Source: Cellulomonas fimi
Lineage (GTDB): Bacteria; Actinomycetota; Actinomycetes; Actinomycetales; Cellulomonadaceae
DNA length: 44,624 nucleotides
Reading direction: 5' to 3'
Assembly: GCF_012952065.1 (NCBI RefSeq)
Contig: NZ_JABCJJ010000021.1
Coordinates: forward strand, 1 to 44,624
The notes under the pieces were generated by a model that was not told the DNA's origin, did not search any database, and saw only the letters and a list, made by a program, of their open reading frames with translations. Of this stretch, positions 12,387 through 18,582 are shown piece after piece. Each line of letters opens with the position of its first letter. Position 1 is the first letter of the stretch. Both the position numbers and the translations under genes were made by a program.

Positions 12387-12750
12387 GGGGGTGATCGGTT
12401 TCGACGGTGATCGTCGATCCAGGAGAAGCGGGCCGAGGATGCAGGGTTATCTCGTCAACGCTCCCTGCAAACCAATAGGTGCCGATTCCAAGCGCACCGA
12501 CTTCGCACTCGCCGCCTGAGCGAGTCCTGAAGTCCGTCAGTCCGAGTTCGCTCTCGCCTCGGTAACTGGCGTCATCTAGAGAGCCACTGCTCCCAACGTT
12601 CGTCGTCGGCGTTGGGGGGACTCTGAGGCGACTGAGCCTGTCAGCGACATGTCTGCTAGATCGTTGGGGCTGAGAAAAGCGCAGCAGACTGCGCCCGGAG
12701 AAGTCCTGGTTCACAGTCATCGGACGCGGGTTCGATTCCCGCCACCTCCA
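12387..12750 (+). ncRNA. ssrA: Transfer-messenger RNA (tmRNA)
   Basis: Rescues stalled ribosomes together with SmpB. The 5' end GGGGGTG (12387-12393) pairs with CACCTCC (12743-12749), making the acceptor stem, with discriminator A at 12750. The conserved 5' part GATCGGTTTCGACGG and the T-arm GGTTCGATTCC are present. The tag frame runs from 12481 to the TGA at 12517-12519 and reads ADSKRTDFALAA, a typical actinobacterial degradation tag. CCA is not fully encoded. The last 20 nt of the RNA form one copy of the island direct repeat, so the gene stayed intact after integration. Confidence 0.97.
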
Positions 12751-12751
12751 C
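12731..12751 (+). other. Left attachment repeat (attL) in the ssrA 3' end
   Basis: A 21-bp sequence beginning TTCGATTCCCGCC, covering the T-loop, T-stem and acceptor strand of tmRNA. It is repeated exactly at 16950-16970. The 4 bases GCGG two positions upstream also match in both copies. tmRNA 3' ends are well-known tyrosine-integrase target sites. Confidence 0.85.
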
Positions 12752-12830
12752 CCGTTCGGTCCCGTGTGATGCCGTCGCGTTCCAGCGGATCGCTTCGGGA
12801 CGCCGTCGATTCCGTCGGGATCTGTTGGTG

Positions 12831-13106
12831 TCATGGCGAGGCGTCCGGCGCCCGCGCAGTGGCGCGCTGACGGTCCGTCGGCCGTGCTTGGCACGACGGC
12901 GTACCGCGTTTGCCCCGCGCACCTGTGTCGAGCACAAGGCCGAGGTCGACCGCAGCGTCGCTCACGGAGCTTGGCTCGGGCGTGGCGGTGATGCCGAGGA
13001 GGCCTGCCAGCACGGTCTTGGGGCCGTCGATCAGCATGTTCACCTTGTCTGGGTGTTCCTCGGGAGTGAACATGAGCGAGTCTGAACGCAGAACCATGGA
13101 ACGCAA
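12831..13106 (-). CDS. Possible small protein downstream of the primase-helicase
   Basis: An open frame of up to 91 aa that starts 11 nt after the primase-helicase stop on the same strand, with TTG at 13106 or ATG at 13097. The first half (LMFTPEEHPDKVNMLIDGPKTVLAGLLGI, written here only as a pattern of acidic and hydrophobic positions) looks protein-like; the second half is Arg/Pro-rich and less so. There is no Shine-Dalgarno sequence and I recognise no family. It could be a third island component, a remnant, or not coding. The stretch 12751-12830 holds nothing I can identify. Confidence 0.3.
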   Translation of the reverse strand: MRSMVLRSDSLMFTPEEHPDKVNMLIDGPKTVLAGLLGITATPEPSSVSDAAVDLGLVLDTGARGKRGTPSCQARPTDRQRATARAPDASP

Positions 13107-13117
13107 GCCGTGCCAAC

Positions 13118-15484
13118 TCAGGAACGAGCGTTCTCAAGCTGCTCAAAGCCGAGGGCGCGGTACCCGGGCCTCCGGCGCTGCAGGGAGACCGCAAGGATGG
13201 GCACCGCAGCATCGTGGTAGTCGTGCACCTCGGCGATGGCCTTGCCCGGCGCTGAGCGCACGACCCGTCCGGCGCATTGCACCAGCAGCCCGGGGAACGA
13301 GATGGGTGCGGCGAGGAAGAGCGTGTCGAGCGCGGGAGCGTCGAAGCCTTCGCCGATGAACGGCGTCGTGCCGAGCACCAGCACGCCGTCGCCCGCGTTC
13401 GCCGCCGCGAGTCGCTCTACCGCCGCCCTCCGGTCGGTGACCGACATGCCGCCCCGCATCACGAGTGCGTCATGCCCACGCGAGGCGAGCTTCGACGCGA
13501 GGGCGTCGAGGTGTGCGACCCGGCGGGTCAGAACCAGGCAGTTGCGTCCGCGGGCAAGCGCGGCGGCCACATCGTTCACGATCTGCCCGTTGCGCTCCTC
13601 GTCCGCCGCGAGAGCCCCGTGGACCGCGGCGATGGCACCTGGCTCGGACAGATCGACGACGGCCGAGAACCGCGTCTGATGGACGTGGAGCACCCGGCGT
13701 GGACCCGGTTCAGCTGACCAAGCCTCGGTCAGGGTGCCCGGCTCCGCGTCCGTCACCGTGTGCCGGATGGGACCGAGCTGCCACGTCACCAGGTCACCGA
13801 GTCCGTCGCGCCGGTCGGGGGTCGCCGTCAGGCCGAGCCAGAACTGCGCGCCTATCCGCTTGACGGAATGGTCGTAGGCGGCAGCGGCCAGGTGGTGGCA
13901 CTCGTCGACGACCATCTGCCCGTAGCTTCTCGTCAGCTCCACGACGTCCGCGTGCCGGGCCAGAGAAGGCATCATCGCGATGTCGACGACGCCGGTGAGC
14001 TTGCGTCGTCCCCCGCCGACCTGACCGGGCCGGACTCCGAGCAGCTCGGTGATCCGGGTGCGCCACTGCTCGGCGAGGGCCTTGCGGTCGACCAGGACGA
14101 GTGTCGACGTCGAGCGCTCGGCTATCACGGCGCAGGCGATGACGGTCTTGCCCGAACCGGGCGGGGCGACAAGCACGCCGTCGTCGTGGGCGAGCAGAGC
14201 ACTGACAGCCGTGGTCTGCGGTGCGCTGAGCTCAGCCTGGAACGCGACACCGATCTCCTCGCCCGCGTTCCGGACGTCGGTCAGGTCGAGCCGGGAGCCG
14301 GCGCGCTCCACGATGTCGGCGACCACGTGGCGAAGTCCCCTGGGGAGCACAAGCTGGTCGTCGACGGTGACGTCGTAGCCACGGACGAACCGCGGCGTGT
14401 CCCAGGTGGATTTCCGCAACCGCTGGAGCTCGTAGAACTTCGGGTTAGCCATCGACGCTGCGTGCTTGAACGTCGCTATCGCGGCCGGGGTGAGGCGCGC
14501 CGTGTCGAGCACGAGACCTGCACCCAGCTCAGCACGGACCACGGCAGGCAGGCGCGGCCGCACCCTGCTTGCGGTCGGGGGGCTCAGCGTCCGGACGTCC
14601 GCTCCTACTGCCGCGCGGCTCGCCCTGCGTGCGATGAGGGCCGCGTCACGCGAGCTCAGCCGATCGAGCGTGGACAGGAACGCCCACTGGTCCTCGTACG
14701 GCTCGAGCGTTCCCAGGTCCAGGAACAAGGTCAGGCCGTCCTGACGCCGACGGCCTTGCATCGGCGCCGCGATGAGGTTGCCGAAGCCCCCGTCGGGCAG
14801 CACATCCTGGTTCGGGAACAGCCGGTCGTAGGAGCGCAGGTCCATCGACCCGCGCAGCACCATCGCCTCGTGCACCAGCGCCGTCCCGATCGCTCGCGCG
14901 GTGCTCGCCGGCACCCGGTCGGCGAAGAACGCCCACACGTGAGCGCCGCGTCCCGACTGCGAGATCTCCAGGGTGGTGGGGACGTCGTTGGCTCGCGCCG
15001 CCTTCGTGTAGGCGAGCGCGTCGAGCATCGCGGCCGGGCCGTCGAAGTCTGCGACGAGGAAGCGGCAGCTGTTGTCCCGCAGCAGGGGGTACAACCCCAC
15101 GAAGACGTCCCCGAGCAGGTGCGAGGCGATCACCTGTGGCGTCAGCGGCAGGTGCCGGGCGCTCTTGCTGTCCATCCCCTTTCGCCAGCCTCCGGCCACC
15201 GCAGGCATCCACCCGCTGGCTCCGGTCCGGGCGTTCTCCCAGCGGACGGCGTGCACGTCGGTGCGCGCGTGGAACAGGTCTGCGTAGAGCGCGAGCTTGT
15301 CGGCCACGGGGGAGGCCATCGTCACCACGCCGCTGGGTGCGAGCCCCGCTGTCGGTTGCTCCGGAGCCGGCGTGGTGTCCTGTCCGCGCAGATCGAGCAA
15401 CCGGGTCAGGCGTTCGTTCTCCGCGCGGAGCCTGCGCAACTCGTCGCGCAGCTGGCCGACCTCGTCCGACGGGGTCACGTACAC
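13118..15484 (-). CDS. TOTE conflict-system-type primase-helicase
   Basis: About 788 aa. A short N-terminal coiled coil ([20 protein letters not shown]) is followed by an archaeo-eukaryotic primase domain (about 65-330) with VADFDG, the acidic catalytic pair, and the family hallmark FPNQD then [14 protein letters not shown] superfamily 2 helicase of XPB/UvsW type (about 395-780) has Walker [14 protein letters not shown] box, LTATP and motif [10 protein letters not shown]. Such fusions are the core of predicted TOTE conflict systems, thought to act on replication of invading DNA. All key residues are kept. No nuclease partner is evident. The frame is open to 15607; GTG at 15484 is chosen because the coiled coil follows directly, and GTG at 15478 is also possible. 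Confidence 0.85.
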
Positions 15485-15673
15485 CGTCGCATCGTTGCAT
15501 GGCCTCCGGGATACGCCGACTACCGCGTGAGCCGCCTCGTCGAATCGTTCCGAGGTTCGCAAGCGCCCGATGTCGGCCCCATCGCACTCGGTGCGTCGAC
15601 ACACCAACTCAACGCGACAAACGTGTCAAGATAGGGCTCCGTTAGCATCTTTCTCGGGTTTGATGGGGGGATC
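15485..15673. promoter_or_regulatory. Divergent control region between the primase-helicase and fic
   Basis: TTGACA on the minus strand (complement of TGTCAA at 15624-15629) could be a -35 box for leftward transcription, and TAGCAT at 15643-15648 a -10 box for fic. A short inverted repeat GACA-N4-TGTC spans 15616-15627 beside both. One regulator could therefore act on both genes; none is recognised in the island. Confidence 0.4.
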
Positions 15674-16720
15674 GTGCAGTCCTTCGTGGACTTGGACACG
15701 CTGGTCGGGAGCGTGCCGTTCGCCATCGTTCGCGACCTCAGGATCGTCGACACCGGCGCCGGCTCCGAGGCGCTGTACCGCGACAAGCTTCCCGCTCTGT
15801 TGACCACCCTCGCTGCGCGCGCCCGGGTAGCCAGCATCGAGGCATCCTCCGCGATCGAGGGTGTCGTCGTCGAGGACCGAGCGCGGGCCGCAGCGATCGT
15901 CGCCGGTCGGGCGGACCACCTGCGCAACCGCAGCGAGCAGGAGCTCGCCGGGTACCGGGCCGCCCTCGACTACCTGTATCAGGAGCAGTGGCGGCCGCTC
16001 AACGTGGGCCTCTTGCTGCACCTGCACCGGCTGCTGTTCCAGTACACGCAGCTGCCTGGCGGCGCTCTGAAGCAGACGGAGAACGTTGTGGTGGACCAGA
16101 TGCCCGACGGGACGAAGGTTAAGCGATTCACGCCCGTGTCCGTCGGGCAGACACCCGGGTACCTCGAGGAGCTCGTCGCCCGGTTCAGAGCCGCCGAGAC
16201 AGCGGGGCAGCACCACCCGGTGATCCTCGTGGGGCTGTTCGCCCTGGATCTGCTGACCATCCACCCGTTCCTGGACGGCAACGGCCGCATCACGCGGGCT
16301 CTGACCAACGCGCTGCTGCAGGACGCCGGGTACGACGTCACCCGATACGTGTCGCTGGAGACGTCCATCGCCGCGTCCGACGACGCCTACTACGGGGCGC
16401 TGCTCACCTCCACCGAGGGGTGGCACGAGGGCAAGCACAACCCGTGGCCGTGGCTGCGCTACTTCGTCGGCCTGGTCGCACGGTCCTACGAGCAGTTCGC
16501 CTTGCTCACGGACGCCGAGCGGTCCGGCGGCAGCAAGCAGGACCGGGTCCGCGACTACGTCCTTCACCATGCGCCGGCGAGGTTCACCATCGCAGACGTG
16601 CGCGCGGCCCTGCCCGGGGTCAGCGACCAGACCATTCGGATCGCCCTCGGACAGCTCAAGGCAGCAGGGAAGGTGTCCGCTGACTCCACCGGCCGCGGAG
16701 CCAGCTGGTCCCGCCTCTGA
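15674..16720 (+). CDS. Fic family protein with winged-helix C-terminus
   Basis: A 348-aa Fic domain protein, a family that mostly transfers AMP from ATP to target proteins. The catalytic motif HPFLDGNGRITR is complete at 197-208. The inhibitory motif S-x3-E-G is at 58-63 (SSAIEG), N-terminal to the Fic core, so this is a self-inhibited class II Fic. A helical N-terminal Fic_N-like region precedes it, and a winged-helix-like C-terminus (RFTIADVRAALPGVSDQTIRIALGQLKAAGKV) could bind DNA. GTG at 15674 follows a G-rich ribosome site. It is divergent from the primase-helicase within the island. The target is unknown; a regulatory or toxin role are both possible. Confidence 0.92.
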   Translation: MQSFVDLDTLVGSVPFAIVRDLRIVDTGAGSEALYRDKLPALLTTLAARARVASIEASSAIEGVVVEDRARAAAIVAGRADHLRNRSEQELAGYRAALDYLYQEQWRPLNVGLLLHLHRLLFQYTQLPGGALKQTENVVVDQMPDGTKVKRFTPVSVGQTPGYLEELVARFRAAETAGQHHPVILVGLFALDLLTIHPFLDGNGRITRALTNALLQDAGYDVTRYVSLETSIAASDDAYYGALLTSTEGWHEGKHNPWPWLRYFVGLVARSYEQFALLTDAERSGGSKQDRVRDYVLHHAPARFTIADVRAALPGVSDQTIRIALGQLKAAGKVSADSTGRGASWSRL

Positions 16721-16949
16721 TCTCGACAGAGAGGAATGAGCTGCTGCACGCAGCGGCGCCGCAGATTCGCCGGATGCACTGGTTGTCGGCCGGTGTCAGA
16801 AGAAGCAGCGATCTCAACGATCCGAGCGCACCCAGCCCGTTGACGCCGTCAACCGATCGACCCCGTATCGCAGCGTGACCCGACAACACAACCAGATGAG
16901 GCCGTACGTCAGGGCCCCGGAGCGCCGTGTCGCCACGCCTTCCAGCGGC

Positions 16950-16970
16950 TTCGATTCCCGCCACCTCCAC
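16950..16970 (+). other. Right attachment repeat (attR)
   Basis: Exact 21-bp copy of 12731-12751. The base before it is C (16949) where tmRNA has G (12730), which would break a T-stem pair, and no other tmRNA part is present. It is therefore a displaced 3'-end copy and not a second tRNA or tmRNA gene. Confidence 0.85.
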
Positions 16971-17154
16971 GTCGCGCCGGACCGCAAGGTCTGGCGCGCA
17001 CTCGAAGGCCGTCATCCCTCTCGCCGGGGGTGGCGGCTTCTCGTGTGTCTGGGCTCGCGGGGAGAGCGCGGGCGCAGCGACGGGGCGCTACCGTTCGCCG
17101 TCCTCGGCCGCGACACGAGACGCCGCACGCGAAGCGGTGGTCGCCGACGAGGGA

Positions 17155-17180: not shown

Positions 17181-17438
17181 GTGCGAACCCTCACTGCCAC
17201 TCACGCCTCACGCGGGTTCTCCGAGCTGCTCGACCGGGTCGAGCGCGGGGAGACGATCCGCATCACACGGGCAGGGCATGTCGTCGCCGAGCTGCGGCCC
17301 GTCGCGCCCACGACCGGGCGAGCCCTGCGCGAAGCCCTCGCGCGGACGCCGGGCCTGGACGACGACTTCGAGGCGGACATCGCCGCAGCGACCTCGCTGC
17401 TCACCACCGACGAGAGCGACCCATGGCGCGCCGGCTGA
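17181..17438 (+). CDS. Phd/YefM-type antitoxin of a VapBC-like pair
   Basis: An 85-aa antitoxin. The N-terminal half (VRTLTATHASRGFSELLDRVERGETIRITRAGHVVAELRPV) has the Phd/YefM fold signature, with the SRGFSELLDRVERGE helix and the ITRAGHVVAEL strand that binds DNA. The C-terminal tail (acidic, DDDFEADIAAATSLL) would wrap the toxin. The GTG start is set by the leaderless -10 box 6 nt upstream. It overlaps the toxin gene by 16 bp. It lies 210 bp beyond the island's right repeat, so it is just outside the island as defined. Confidence 0.9.
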   Translation: MRTLTATHASRGFSELLDRVERGETIRITRAGHVVAELRPVAPTTGRALREALARTPGLDDDFEADIAAATSLLTTDESDPWRAG

Positions 17439-17821
17439 TCCTCGACACCAACACCCTGATCGCGTACGAGCGACAGCGCTTCGACATCACCACGCTGGAC
17501 GAGGACGACCTTGCGATCGCGGCTGTCTCGGTTGCCGAGTTCCGGACCGGCATCGAGCTCGCCGACAACCCGCGGCGCGCCGCTGACCGTGCACGCGTCC
17601 TGGCTGCCATCACCGCCACGGTCGCCGTACTCGACTACACCGAGGCGACCGCCGCTGAACACGGGCGGCTCCTGGCGCACGTGCGACGTGAAGGCATCCC
17701 TCGCGGTGCGCACGACCTGATCGTCGCTGCGCACGCCGTGGAGGACTCCCGGGCGGTCCTGTCCTTGGACGCGAAGGCGCGGTTCGGAGACCTGCCGGGC
17801 GTCCTCGCCCTGACTCCGTAG
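17423..17821 (+). CDS. PIN-domain toxin, VapC-like ribonuclease
   Basis: A 132-aa PIN-domain protein, expected to cleave RNA with Mg2+ when free of antitoxin. The acidic set is in place: LILDTNTLIAYE (first Asp), VSVAEFRTGIEL (Glu), GAHDLIVAAHA (Asp) and LSLDAKARFGDLPGV (last Asp region). The frame is open upstream, but ATG at 17423 is chosen because it overlaps the antitoxin's end as in most such operons and gives the conserved beginning. The 240 bp to the next gene show nothing I can identify. Confidence 0.92.
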   Translation: MARRLILDTNTLIAYERQRFDITTLDEDDLAIAAVSVAEFRTGIELADNPRRAADRARVLAAITATVAVLDYTEATAAEHGRLLAHVRREGIPRGAHDLIVAAHAVEDSRAVLSLDAKARFGDLPGVLALTP

Positions 17822-18048
17822 GCTGACGACACCGCACCGGAACCGCGTTCGTGAGGCATCCGCGGTCGGAGCGGCAGGGAGCCCGTCAGCAGTCTCGGAT
17901 CACCGCGCCATTGTTGTCCCGCGCCTCGTCGTAGCCCCCAGCGGGACAGGTAGTACGCCGACACCCGCCGGCACGCAGCGGCGACCCGAACGCCGCCGTT
18001 CCCGCATGACGATCCGCTCGGATCCTGGCCCGCCGAGGGGCAGGTGAC

Positions 18049-18061
18049 TACGATTTAGGTC
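18049..18061 (+). promoter_or_regulatory. Leaderless promoter of the relB-like gene
   Basis: The -10 box TACGAT (18049-18054) is followed after 7 nt by ATG at 18062. No Shine-Dalgarno sequence is present. No clear operator palindrome is visible here. Confidence 0.55.
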
Positions 18062-18322
18062 ATGTCTACGACGACCTCGCTTGCTCACGTCAAGGCGCAT
18101 CTCTCGGCCATCGTCAGCTCGGTGCACGACACCCACGAGCGCGTCGTGATCACGCGCAACGGCGAGCCGGCCGCCGTTCTCATCTCGCCCGACGACCTCG
18201 CAGCCCTCGAGGAGACCGTCGACATCCTCTCCGACTCGGCAGCGATGTCGAATTTGCGTGAAGCGGGCGCCGAGATCGAGGCCGGCACGACCGTCGAGCT
18301 GACCGAGTTCCCGCGCCGGTGA
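18062..18322 (+). CDS. Phd/YefM (RelB-like) antitoxin
   Basis: An 86-aa antitoxin with the Phd/YefM signature: SLAHVKAHLSAIVSSVHDTHERVVITRNGEPAAVLISPDDLAALEETVDIL, where the ITRNGEPAAVLIS strand and following helix are diagnostic. The acidic tail (EAGAEIEAGTTVELTEF) is the expected toxin-binding part. It overlaps the toxin start by 4 bp. The gene follows the VapBC-like pair by 240 bp; the two antitoxins are related in fold but clearly different in sequence, so this is not a recent duplication. Confidence 0.92.
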   Translation: MSTTTSLAHVKAHLSAIVSSVHDTHERVVITRNGEPAAVLISPDDLAALEETVDILSDSAAMSNLREAGAEIEAGTTVELTEFPRR

Positions 18323-18582
18323 CCTACCGCATCCGCTGGGCCTCACCCGCCCGACGAGCGATCGAGAACGCACTGCCCGAGGCAGTCGCCGCCGCCGTGT
18401 GGGAGTTCGTCAACGGCCCGCTGGCCGAGAACCCGCACCGCGTGGGTAAGCGGCGGGTGCGCGACCTCGCCGGTTACTGGTCGGCCCGGCGGGGTCAGTA
18501 CCGGGTCATCTACGTCGTCGACGACCAAGAAGTCGATGTCACCATCGTGGCCGTGGATCACCGCCGCGACGCCTACCGCTGA
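18319..18582 (+). CDS. RelE/ParE-family toxin
   Basis: An 87-aa RelE-fold toxin, expected to cut mRNA in the ribosome or to act on gyrase if ParE-like. The conserved C-terminal core RVRDLAGYWSARRGQYRVIYVVDD, then VTIVAVDHRRDAYR, matches RelE, including the basic Arg cluster and the HR-x2-Y end. GTG at 18319 overlaps the antitoxin stop in the arrangement GTGA, so translation is coupled. Confidence 0.92.
   Translation: MTYRIRWASPARRAIENALPEAVAAAVWEFVNGPLAENPHRVGKRRVRDLAGYWSARRGQYRVIYVVDDQEVDVTIVAVDHRRDAYR

What the first reader, a model, noticed from the sequence alone, without database searches (positions are those of the whole stretch)
12731..16970. Integrase-less 4.2-kb island in the tmRNA gene carrying a TOTE-type primase-helicase and a Fic protein
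The sequence shows an exact 21-bp direct repeat of the ssrA 3' end at 12731-12751 and 16950-16970, enclosing just two solid genes on opposite strands. tmRNA 3' ends are established integrase targets. The lack of any recombinase suggests a satellite-like defence cargo moved in trans, or a trimmed remnant. A minimal element built around TOTE and Fic is, to my knowledge, not described.
Basis: partly seen in the sequence, partly recalled or inferred. Interest (0 to 1): 0.85.

Follow-up and report, generated by a model that had tools for sequence, protein, structure and literature searches.

The report
Integrase-less defence islet behind tmRNA
A 4.2-kb piece of foreign DNA with two probable defence genes sits exactly at the end of the tmRNA gene; it has the landing-site sequences of a known kind of mobile element but not the enzyme that moves it, so it was probably brought in by a helper element or is what is left of a larger one.

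Summary
The exact 21-bp repeat (25 of 26 bp) marks a site-specific insertion between ssrA and its terminator: the hairpin right of the second repeat is an exact 34-mer behind the single-copy ssrA of relative G022. The island holds a TOTE-type primase-helicase and a Fic protein, no recombinase.

New is the end anatomy. The right end carries GTTGACGCCGTCAAC about 110 bp inside the repeat, as at ssrA in 11 family relatives, 9 of them with one type of tyrosine integrase behind ssrA. The left end resembles a second left-arm type that heads integrase-less, toxin-antitoxin-bearing segments in tandem behind integrase islands.

TOTE recurs this way: 14 of 83 TOTE loci lie between repeats of tRNA/tmRNA sequence, 13 of 14 without a detected integrase. 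The TOTE-Fic pair is unique among 221 family genomes.

Best reading: a non-autonomous islet moved in trans by ssrA integrases, now probably stranded; decay of an integrase island is the main rival. Integrase-less ssrA islands are in print for Dehalococcoides: new variant of a known kind. Mobility and defence untested.

The parts
12387..12752 (+). ssrA (tmRNA gene), the target
   Evidence: ARAGORN, tag ADSKRTDFALAA
12731..12751 (+). left copy of the attachment core (attL), end of ssrA
   Evidence: exact direct repeat
12753..12850 (+). left arm, second type; degenerate palindrome CGGGACGCCGTCGAT at 12796-12810
   Evidence: local alignment to arms of G021 (47), G018 (42), G013 (39), G090 (34), each reached by 0 of 1000 shuffles; weaker to G010 (25, 4 of 1000) and a second G021 arm (23, 14 of 1000)
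13118..15484 (-). TOTE-type archaeo-eukaryotic primase fused to an SF2 (XPB/RadD-like) helicase, 788 aa
   Evidence: Pfam PF22548 E 2.5e-74, ResIII, Helicase_C; motifs present; XPBII as nearest solved helicase by sequence
15485..15673 (.). 189-bp gap between the two divergent starts, presumed promoter region
   Evidence: gene coordinates and inferred TOTE start
15674..16720 (+). Fic protein, 348 aa, with HPFLDGNGRITR and SSAIEG
   Evidence: Pfam Fic E 1.7e-14, PADLOC SoFic E 4.4e-28, motifs
16839..16853 (+). right-arm palindrome GTTGACGCCGTCAAC, 111 bp before the right core
   Evidence: same sequence at 110 +/- 1 bp in 11 relatives
16950..16970 (+). right copy of the attachment core (attR)
16971..17040 (+). 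native ssrA terminator region: two hairpins, including the 34-mer 17004-17037
   Evidence: fold z -4.75 for 16968-17062, 0 of 200 shuffles as stable; 34-mer exact in G022, its last 32 bases in G023

Best explanation
A small non-autonomous integrative element that belongs to the range of one ssrA-specific tyrosine-integrase family. Shown: it is bounded by the duplicated end of ssrA; its right arm has the family's palindrome at the family's distance; its left arm is of a second type that also heads integrase-less, TA-bearing segments behind integrase islands; it has no integrase; and the seven fetched tyrosine recombinases of its genome are only distant relatives of the ssrA integrase. Inferred: an integrase from a co-resident or incoming ssrA island acted in trans on these ends, brought the islet in, and was lost or never stayed; the degenerate left palindrome suggests that the islet is stranded now. 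Inferred cargo action: TOTE loads on and unwinds or primes invading DNA, and Fic AMPylates a host target to halt growth; Fic is the toxin-like partner here, where other TOTE islets carry AbiE, PIN, GNAT or HigB-like partners.
For: Borders and terminator. Right-arm palindrome exact in G007, G010, G013, G016, G018, G019, G021, G032, G090, G110, G159; an integrase ORF behind ssrA is seen in 9 of these 11 (in two pieces in G019), fragments only in G016, not seen in the 2.5 kb fetched of G090. Left arm like that of G021, G018, G013, G090. G021: 3.7-kb segment between two exact cores with AbiEi, AbiEii and a weak second AbiEii, no match to the integrase queries, directly behind an integrase island; G018: same arm, then AbiEi, AbiEii, HEPN. 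13 of 14 tRNA/tmRNA-bounded TOTE islets without a detected integrase. L062: both arms duplicated in its neighbour, core included 90% over 264 and 84% over 235 columns, no integrase in the islet. Nearest home recombinase about 30% identical to the ssrA integrases over ~390 aa.
Against: No excision, circle or transfer was seen. Left palindrome degenerate. No helper in this genome. The search of 221 genomes with the G021 arm did not return the window. Only one second-type segment (G021) has both exact ends in view, and in G021 a similar arm also follows the last core, so native flank of another lineage is not fully excluded. 3 of the 8 distal cores of G013 have no such palindrome and a fourth has it at -120. 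69 of 83 TOTE loci were not found in such islets.
Confidence: 0.55

Rival explanations
1. Decayed remnant: an integrase-bearing ssrA island lost integrase and left arm by deletion or recombination and kept two genes and attR; a cis-mobilizable element at best.
For: Integrase islands with the same right arm occupy ssrA in G001, G002, G004 of the same genus. Clear remnants exist elsewhere: 135-aa truncated integrase in G072, fragments in G016. The window's left palindrome is degenerate. CIMEs are described as decayed ICEs or IMEs (PMC5704250, passages seen).
Against: No integrase fragment in the island; the left arm is not an eroded integrase-type arm but matches another recurring type; integrase-less TOTE islets recur at many tRNA genes.
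Confidence: 0.33
2. Plain defence cargo brought to ssrA by homologous recombination with another element's arms; the repeat is inherited from an older island and the genes have no link to integrase action.
For: ssrA is a crowded site: 19 of the 112 genomes that hold the exact 20-mer have two or more copies on one contig; G013 shows a tandem array with nine copies.
Against: Both ends are element-type ends and nothing of another element remains between them.
Confidence: 0.07
3. TOTE itself drives insertion or excision (primase-helicase-based mobility) and no integrase is needed.
For: TOTE is the gene shared by the 14 tRNA/tmRNA islets. AEP genes are common on integrated elements (PMC5862659, passages seen).
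Against: Ends follow the arm pattern of a tyrosine-integrase family; a TOTE-free segment (G021, AbiE) has the same kind of ends; TOTE relatives are on 101 of 72,556 plasmid records and 69 of 83 TOTE loci were not found in such islets; L059 has an integrase.
Confidence: 0.03

Closest known systems
ssrA genomic islands of Dehalococcoides without integration module (PMC3146451; passages seen)
   Same: Islands behind ssrA bounded by ssrA direct repeats; the paper reports 15 ssrA islands without integration module and suggests cis-mobilizable elements
   Different: Serine recombinase system and dehalogenase cargo there; tyrosine integrase family, arm palindrome, second-type left arm and TOTE/TA cargo here
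CIME, cis-mobilizable element (PMC5704250; passages seen)
   Same: attL and attR kept, no integration or transfer genes, tandem accretion with functional elements
   Different: CIMEs are defined as decay products; here the left end has a type of its own that recurs in other integrase-less segments
tmRNA-integrated defence islands of Pseudomonas, satellites of a jumbo phage (PMC12595487; passages seen)
   Same: Integration directly behind tmRNA, direct repeats, defence-like cargo, no transfer genes
   Different: Those encode their own tyrosine integrase; this one does not and is far smaller in gene content
AEP-bearing integrated elements, PrimPol-PV1 supergroup (PMC5862659; passages seen)
   Same: AEP primase on elements in tRNA genes, and one in a tmRNA gene, with direct repeats
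   Different: Other AEP families; whether TOTE is among them was not tested; integrase genes are drawn on the maps there

Membership tests
CIME (cis-mobilizable element) | attL and attR retained | tested here: met
   exact 21-bp cores; right-arm palindrome
CIME (cis-mobilizable element) | no integration and no transfer genes | tested here: met
   two genes only, TOTE and Fic; no match to integrase queries
CIME (cis-mobilizable element) | derived by decay of an ICE or IME | tested here: inconclusive
   same right arm as integrase islands but another left arm and no integrase trace
ssrA tyrosine-integrase island of this bacterial family | core in the end of ssrA and palindrome about 110 bp inside the right end | tested here: met
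   16839-16853 and 16950-16970; 11 relatives
ssrA tyrosine-integrase island of this bacterial family | GTTGAC pair at about +49 and +71 of the left arm | tested here: not met
   no GTTGAC in the window's left arm; both sites in G001, G002, G004, G007, G013, G110, G159, one in G032 and G063, other spacing in G072 and G095, none as GTTGAC in G021
ssrA tyrosine-integrase island of this bacterial family | integrase gene (MASxRERRR, about 400 aa) behind ssrA | tested here: not met
TOTE AEP family (Pfam PF22548) | AEP-TOTE domain | tested here: met
   E 2.5e-74, 250 bits against a cut-off of 27
TOTE AEP family (Pfam PF22548) | AEP DxD and H motifs and helicase Walker A and DEAH-type box | tested here: met
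   [26 protein letters not shown] in the window and in nearly all of 82 aligned proteins; members were picked by the SGxGAHxW motif, so that one is conserved by construction
TOTE AEP family (Pfam PF22548) | function in conflict with phages or plasmids | not testable with these tools
   name of the Pfam family only; no paper on it found in the held library
SoFic adenylyltransferase (NCBIfam equivalog NF046030) | score above the curated cut-off | tested here: not met
   25.8 bits against 550; PADLOC SoFic profile E 4.4e-28
SoFic adenylyltransferase (NCBIfam equivalog NF046030) | Fic catalytic motif and N-terminal inhibitory motif (motifs recalled) | tested here: met
   HPFLDGNGRITR from residue 197, SSAIEG from residue 58
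Phage satellite (PICI type; features recalled) | own integrase and packaging or capsid genes | tested here: not met
   only TOTE and Fic between the cores; no TOTE relative in 50,697 phage records, none confirmed in viral contigs

The most novel reading that the evidence does not exclude
TOTE primase-helicases mark a broad class of actinobacterial satellites of integrases: islets of about 4-9 kb at many tRNA genes and at ssrA that carry copied arm sites, a TOTE gene and interchangeable toxin modules, have no integrase, and are moved by whatever integrase of the same site is present, with TOTE maintaining the excised circle.
Probability: 0.2. Interest if true: 0.8.

Novelty: new variant of a known kind. 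Interest (0 to 1): 0.52.

Why it matters
If right, defence genes can spread as very small cassettes that need only a pair of end sequences and borrow another element's integrase. Island finders that start from an integrase beside a tRNA or tmRNA gene (Islander, PMC4383910, is of that kind by its abstract in the search listing) would pass over them. The end pattern found here makes trans-mobilisation testable with one integrase and one marked islet.

Tried and rejected
TOTE-Fic as a conserved pair: rejected. TOTE on phages or viral contigs: no match in the phage records; one pattern match in viral contigs, not confirmed. A printed account of TOTE: none seen in the held library; what the name stands for I do not know. 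G110 at tRNA-Val as a helper case for L129: its post-tRNA sequence resembles the L129 islet's left end, but no element with a second core or integrase could be defined there; dropped. The similarity of window 16838-16979 to G004 resolved into palindrome plus core. The second-type left arm as mere native flank of another genus: single-copy sites show other terminators and the arm carries the palindrome, but G021 has a similar sequence behind its last core too; not fully excluded.

Controls and dropped rows. With the same repeat scan, among the repeats shown tRNA-gene sequence flanks 0 of 17 fetched Fic homologues (of 19 found outside this genome; one, L135, lies at a contig edge) and 1 of 20 fetched AbiEii homologues at 20 bp or more (L158, 42 bp), 2 of 20 if the 16-bp tRNA-Pro repeats of L161 are counted. 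The flanks searched were longer than for TOTE. Two more of the 20 (L170, L171) lie behind ssrA. Direct repeats around TOTE that are not tRNA-gene sequence (among them L031, L052, L054, L071, L072, L083) were not counted as islets, nor the 15-bp tRNA-Met repeat of L104. L128 is taken as the same contig as L027 (same length and match) and not counted twice. No structure prediction was run.

Full report
Observation. tmRNA is at 12387-12752. The 21-bp repeat at 12731-12751 and 16950-16970 is exact and extends to 25 of 26 bp. It has no third copy in the window at up to 3 mismatches (0 in 100 shuffles) and no third exact copy in the genome. The two genes are a TOTE-type AEP primase with an SF2 helicase and a Fic protein. 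PADLOC profiles give PrimPol (1.4e-73) and SoFic (4.4e-28). GC inside is 0.692 against 0.750 and 0.747 outside.

The borders are real. Behind the right repeat stand two hairpins (16968-17062: z -4.75, 0 of 200 shuffles as stable); the left inner flank folds no better than shuffles (z -0.48, 60 of 200). The second hairpin is a 34-mer found unchanged behind the single-copy ssrA of G022; its last 32 bases are in G023, and G112 has it with one change by eye. So the island separates ssrA from its terminator. Of 15 fetched relatives with one exact core, 14 have no tblastn match to the four integrase queries in the 6.9-8.8 kb fetched; the fifteenth, G019, has an integrase in two pieces and a variant second core. 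In the window's own genus (5 genomes held) G001, G002 and G004 have an integrase ORF of 403-406 aa behind ssrA and G003 has none (nearest PF00589 match in G003 about 65 kb from ssrA). In these four genomes TOTE gives only helicase-domain matches and Fic none.

Use of the site in the family. Of 221 genomes 112 hold the exact 20-mer, and 19 of those hold two or more copies on one contig (counted by me from the list). Of the 18 others I fetched 11 and parts of G018. In 8 of the 11 an integrase-like ORF of 321-447 aa beginning or starting within a MASxRERRR-type protein lies behind ssrA; G072 has a 135-aa truncated one, G016 only fragments, and G109 none, its two cores looking like a duplicated ssrA. 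Part of the listing was cut; one search printed the loci that were missing.

Arm pattern. Beside that integrase two direct GTTGAC lie about 49 and 71 bp from the core start in G001, G002, G004, G007, G013, G110 and G159; one of them in G032 and G063; other spacing in G072 and G095; none as GTTGAC in G021. At the far end GTTGACGCCGTCAAC lies 110 +/- 1 bp before the core, exact in G007, G010, G013, G016, G018, G019, G021, G032, G090, G110 and G159, and slightly changed in G002, G004 and G063. Exceptions: in G013 three of eight distal cores lack it and one has it at -120; G072 and G095 have other sequence and spacing. The window has it exactly at 16839-16853. That these are integrase arm sites is inferred from place and symmetry.

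The left end. The window lacks the integrase-type left arm. Its first 100 bp resemble a second type of left arm: G021 (score 47), G018 (42), G013 (39), G090 (34), each reached by 0 of 1000 shuffles; G010 (25, 4 of 1000) and a second G021 arm (23, 14 of 1000) are weaker. A search of 221 genomes with the G021 arm gave 44 genomes at E <= 0.01, most with matches of about 20-40 bp; only G021, G018, G013 and G010 (E <= 4.1e-15) and G090 (1.4e-5) stand out, and the window itself was not returned. In these five the arm directly follows a core that has the right-arm palindrome. In G021 it opens a 3.7-kb segment between two exact cores with AbiEi, AbiEii and a second weak AbiEii hit and no match to the integrase queries; in G018 it is followed by AbiEi, AbiEii and a HEPN protein. 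The G021 arm has GTTGACGCCGTCAAT, the window CGGGACGCCGTCGAT: the inner nine bases are kept, the outer ones changed.

No close helper at home. The seven G000 regions fetched around its PF00589 matches encode recombinases whose nearest, L217, is about 30% identical to the ssrA integrases over some 390 aa.

TOTE elsewhere. The 80 loci (148 relatives found, best 80 kept), the window, and L129 and L130 of the same family make 83; some are cut by contig ends, so islets may be missed. In 14 the TOTE gene lies between direct repeats of 20 bp or more of tRNA or tmRNA sequence: ssrA (window), Arg (L041, L046, L050), Val (L129; in L045 the repeat starts 3 bp behind the tRNA), Lys (L059), Ala (L062), Thr (L086, L091), Pro (L093, L094, L096), Leu (L100). 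The tRNA was called by ARAGORN in L045, L059, L086, L091, L093, L094, L100 and L129 and read by eye from the letters in L041, L046, L050, L062 and L096, where no intact copy was called, as would be expected in tandem arrays. Thirty proteins from 12 of these islets (not all their ORFs; L094 was not scanned) gave one integrase (L059) and otherwise AbiEii, AbiEi, nucleotidyltransferase, HTH plus PIN, GNAT, Gp49/HigB-like plus HTH, Schlafen-type, AAA_14/DUF4143, SNF2, FtsK, small unknown families, or nothing. Tblastn of ten integrase queries over all 14 islets again found only L059. Small or diverged recombinases could be missed. In L062 both arms are duplicated in the neighbour (core included, 90% over 264 and 84% over 235 columns), and the neighbour's left arm abuts a 192-aa ORF that looks like an integrase C-terminus by motif (not checked by Pfam). 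The controls, with 0 of 17 and 1 (or 2) of 20, are in Tried and rejected.

Proteins. In 82 aligned TOTE proteins, picked by the motif SGxGAHxW, the AEP DxD, Walker A, DECHH and TATP motifs are nearly invariant and present in the window; the end of motif VI varies. Nearest solved structures by sequence are XPBII for the helicase and 7nqf (E 3.9e-5; a CRISPR-linked primase by recall) for the AEP part. Fic matches 8uqu nearly over its length (E 4.8e-66). It has HPFLDGNGRITR and SSAIEG, by recall the catalytic motif and the N-terminal inhibitory motif of self-inhibited Fic proteins, which would explain the absence of an antitoxin gene. TOTE relatives are on 101 of 72,556 plasmid records at under 60% identity and on none of 50,697 phage records.

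Mechanism. Shown: precise insertion, end types, absence of integrase. Inferred: trans-action of an ssrA integrase, present stranding, and the cargo's role in defence. Trans-mobilisation (0.55) is preferred to decay (0.33) because the left end has its own recurring type, no integrase trace remains, and the architecture recurs with TOTE at other tRNA genes.

Known or new. Dehalococcoides ssrA islands without integration module (15 in PMC3146451, passages seen) are the nearest printed precedent, and CIME is the nearest named class (PMC5704250, passages seen). Searches for printed TOTE systems or TOTE islets in the held open library found nothing relevant (listings only). I rate it a new variant of a known kind.

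Taxonomy.

Noticed in passing
17181-18582: Two TA-like pairs lie just right of the island: Phd-like with PIN, and Phd/YefM with ParE. The second pair is about 76% identical to copies lying among the ssrA cores of G013, so a second, decayed islet may follow; no third core was found.
   Followed up: partly
L184, L185, L186 (G013): Tandem array around ssrA with nine exact 20-mer copies; neighbouring copies are as little as 1.8 kb apart, with TA genes between some of them.
   Followed up: partly
L158:9387-10304: A 0.9-kb segment with an AbiEii-like fragment between two 42-bp copies of tRNA-Pro-like sequence.
   Followed up: no
L046:5455-6603, L050, L059, L071, L072, L091: A ~380-400-aa protein starting MSEYQYYEF recurs beside TOTE; no Pfam match in the copies of L046, L059 and L091 that were scanned. 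Candidate TOTE partner.
   Followed up: no
L093:5829-6950, L094, L095, L104: Mycobacterial TOTE loci share an HTH_17 protein and a PIN protein directly upstream of TOTE (Pfam for L093), beside tRNA-Pro or tRNA-Met.
   Followed up: partly
L059:6980-9333: The one islet with an integrase has a TOTE match spread beyond its longest TOTE ORF of 377 aa, so the gene may be broken there.
   Followed up: no
L191 (G109): The two exact cores 5.0 kb apart have the same ssrA sequence before them, which looks like a duplicated ssrA rather than an island.
   Followed up: no
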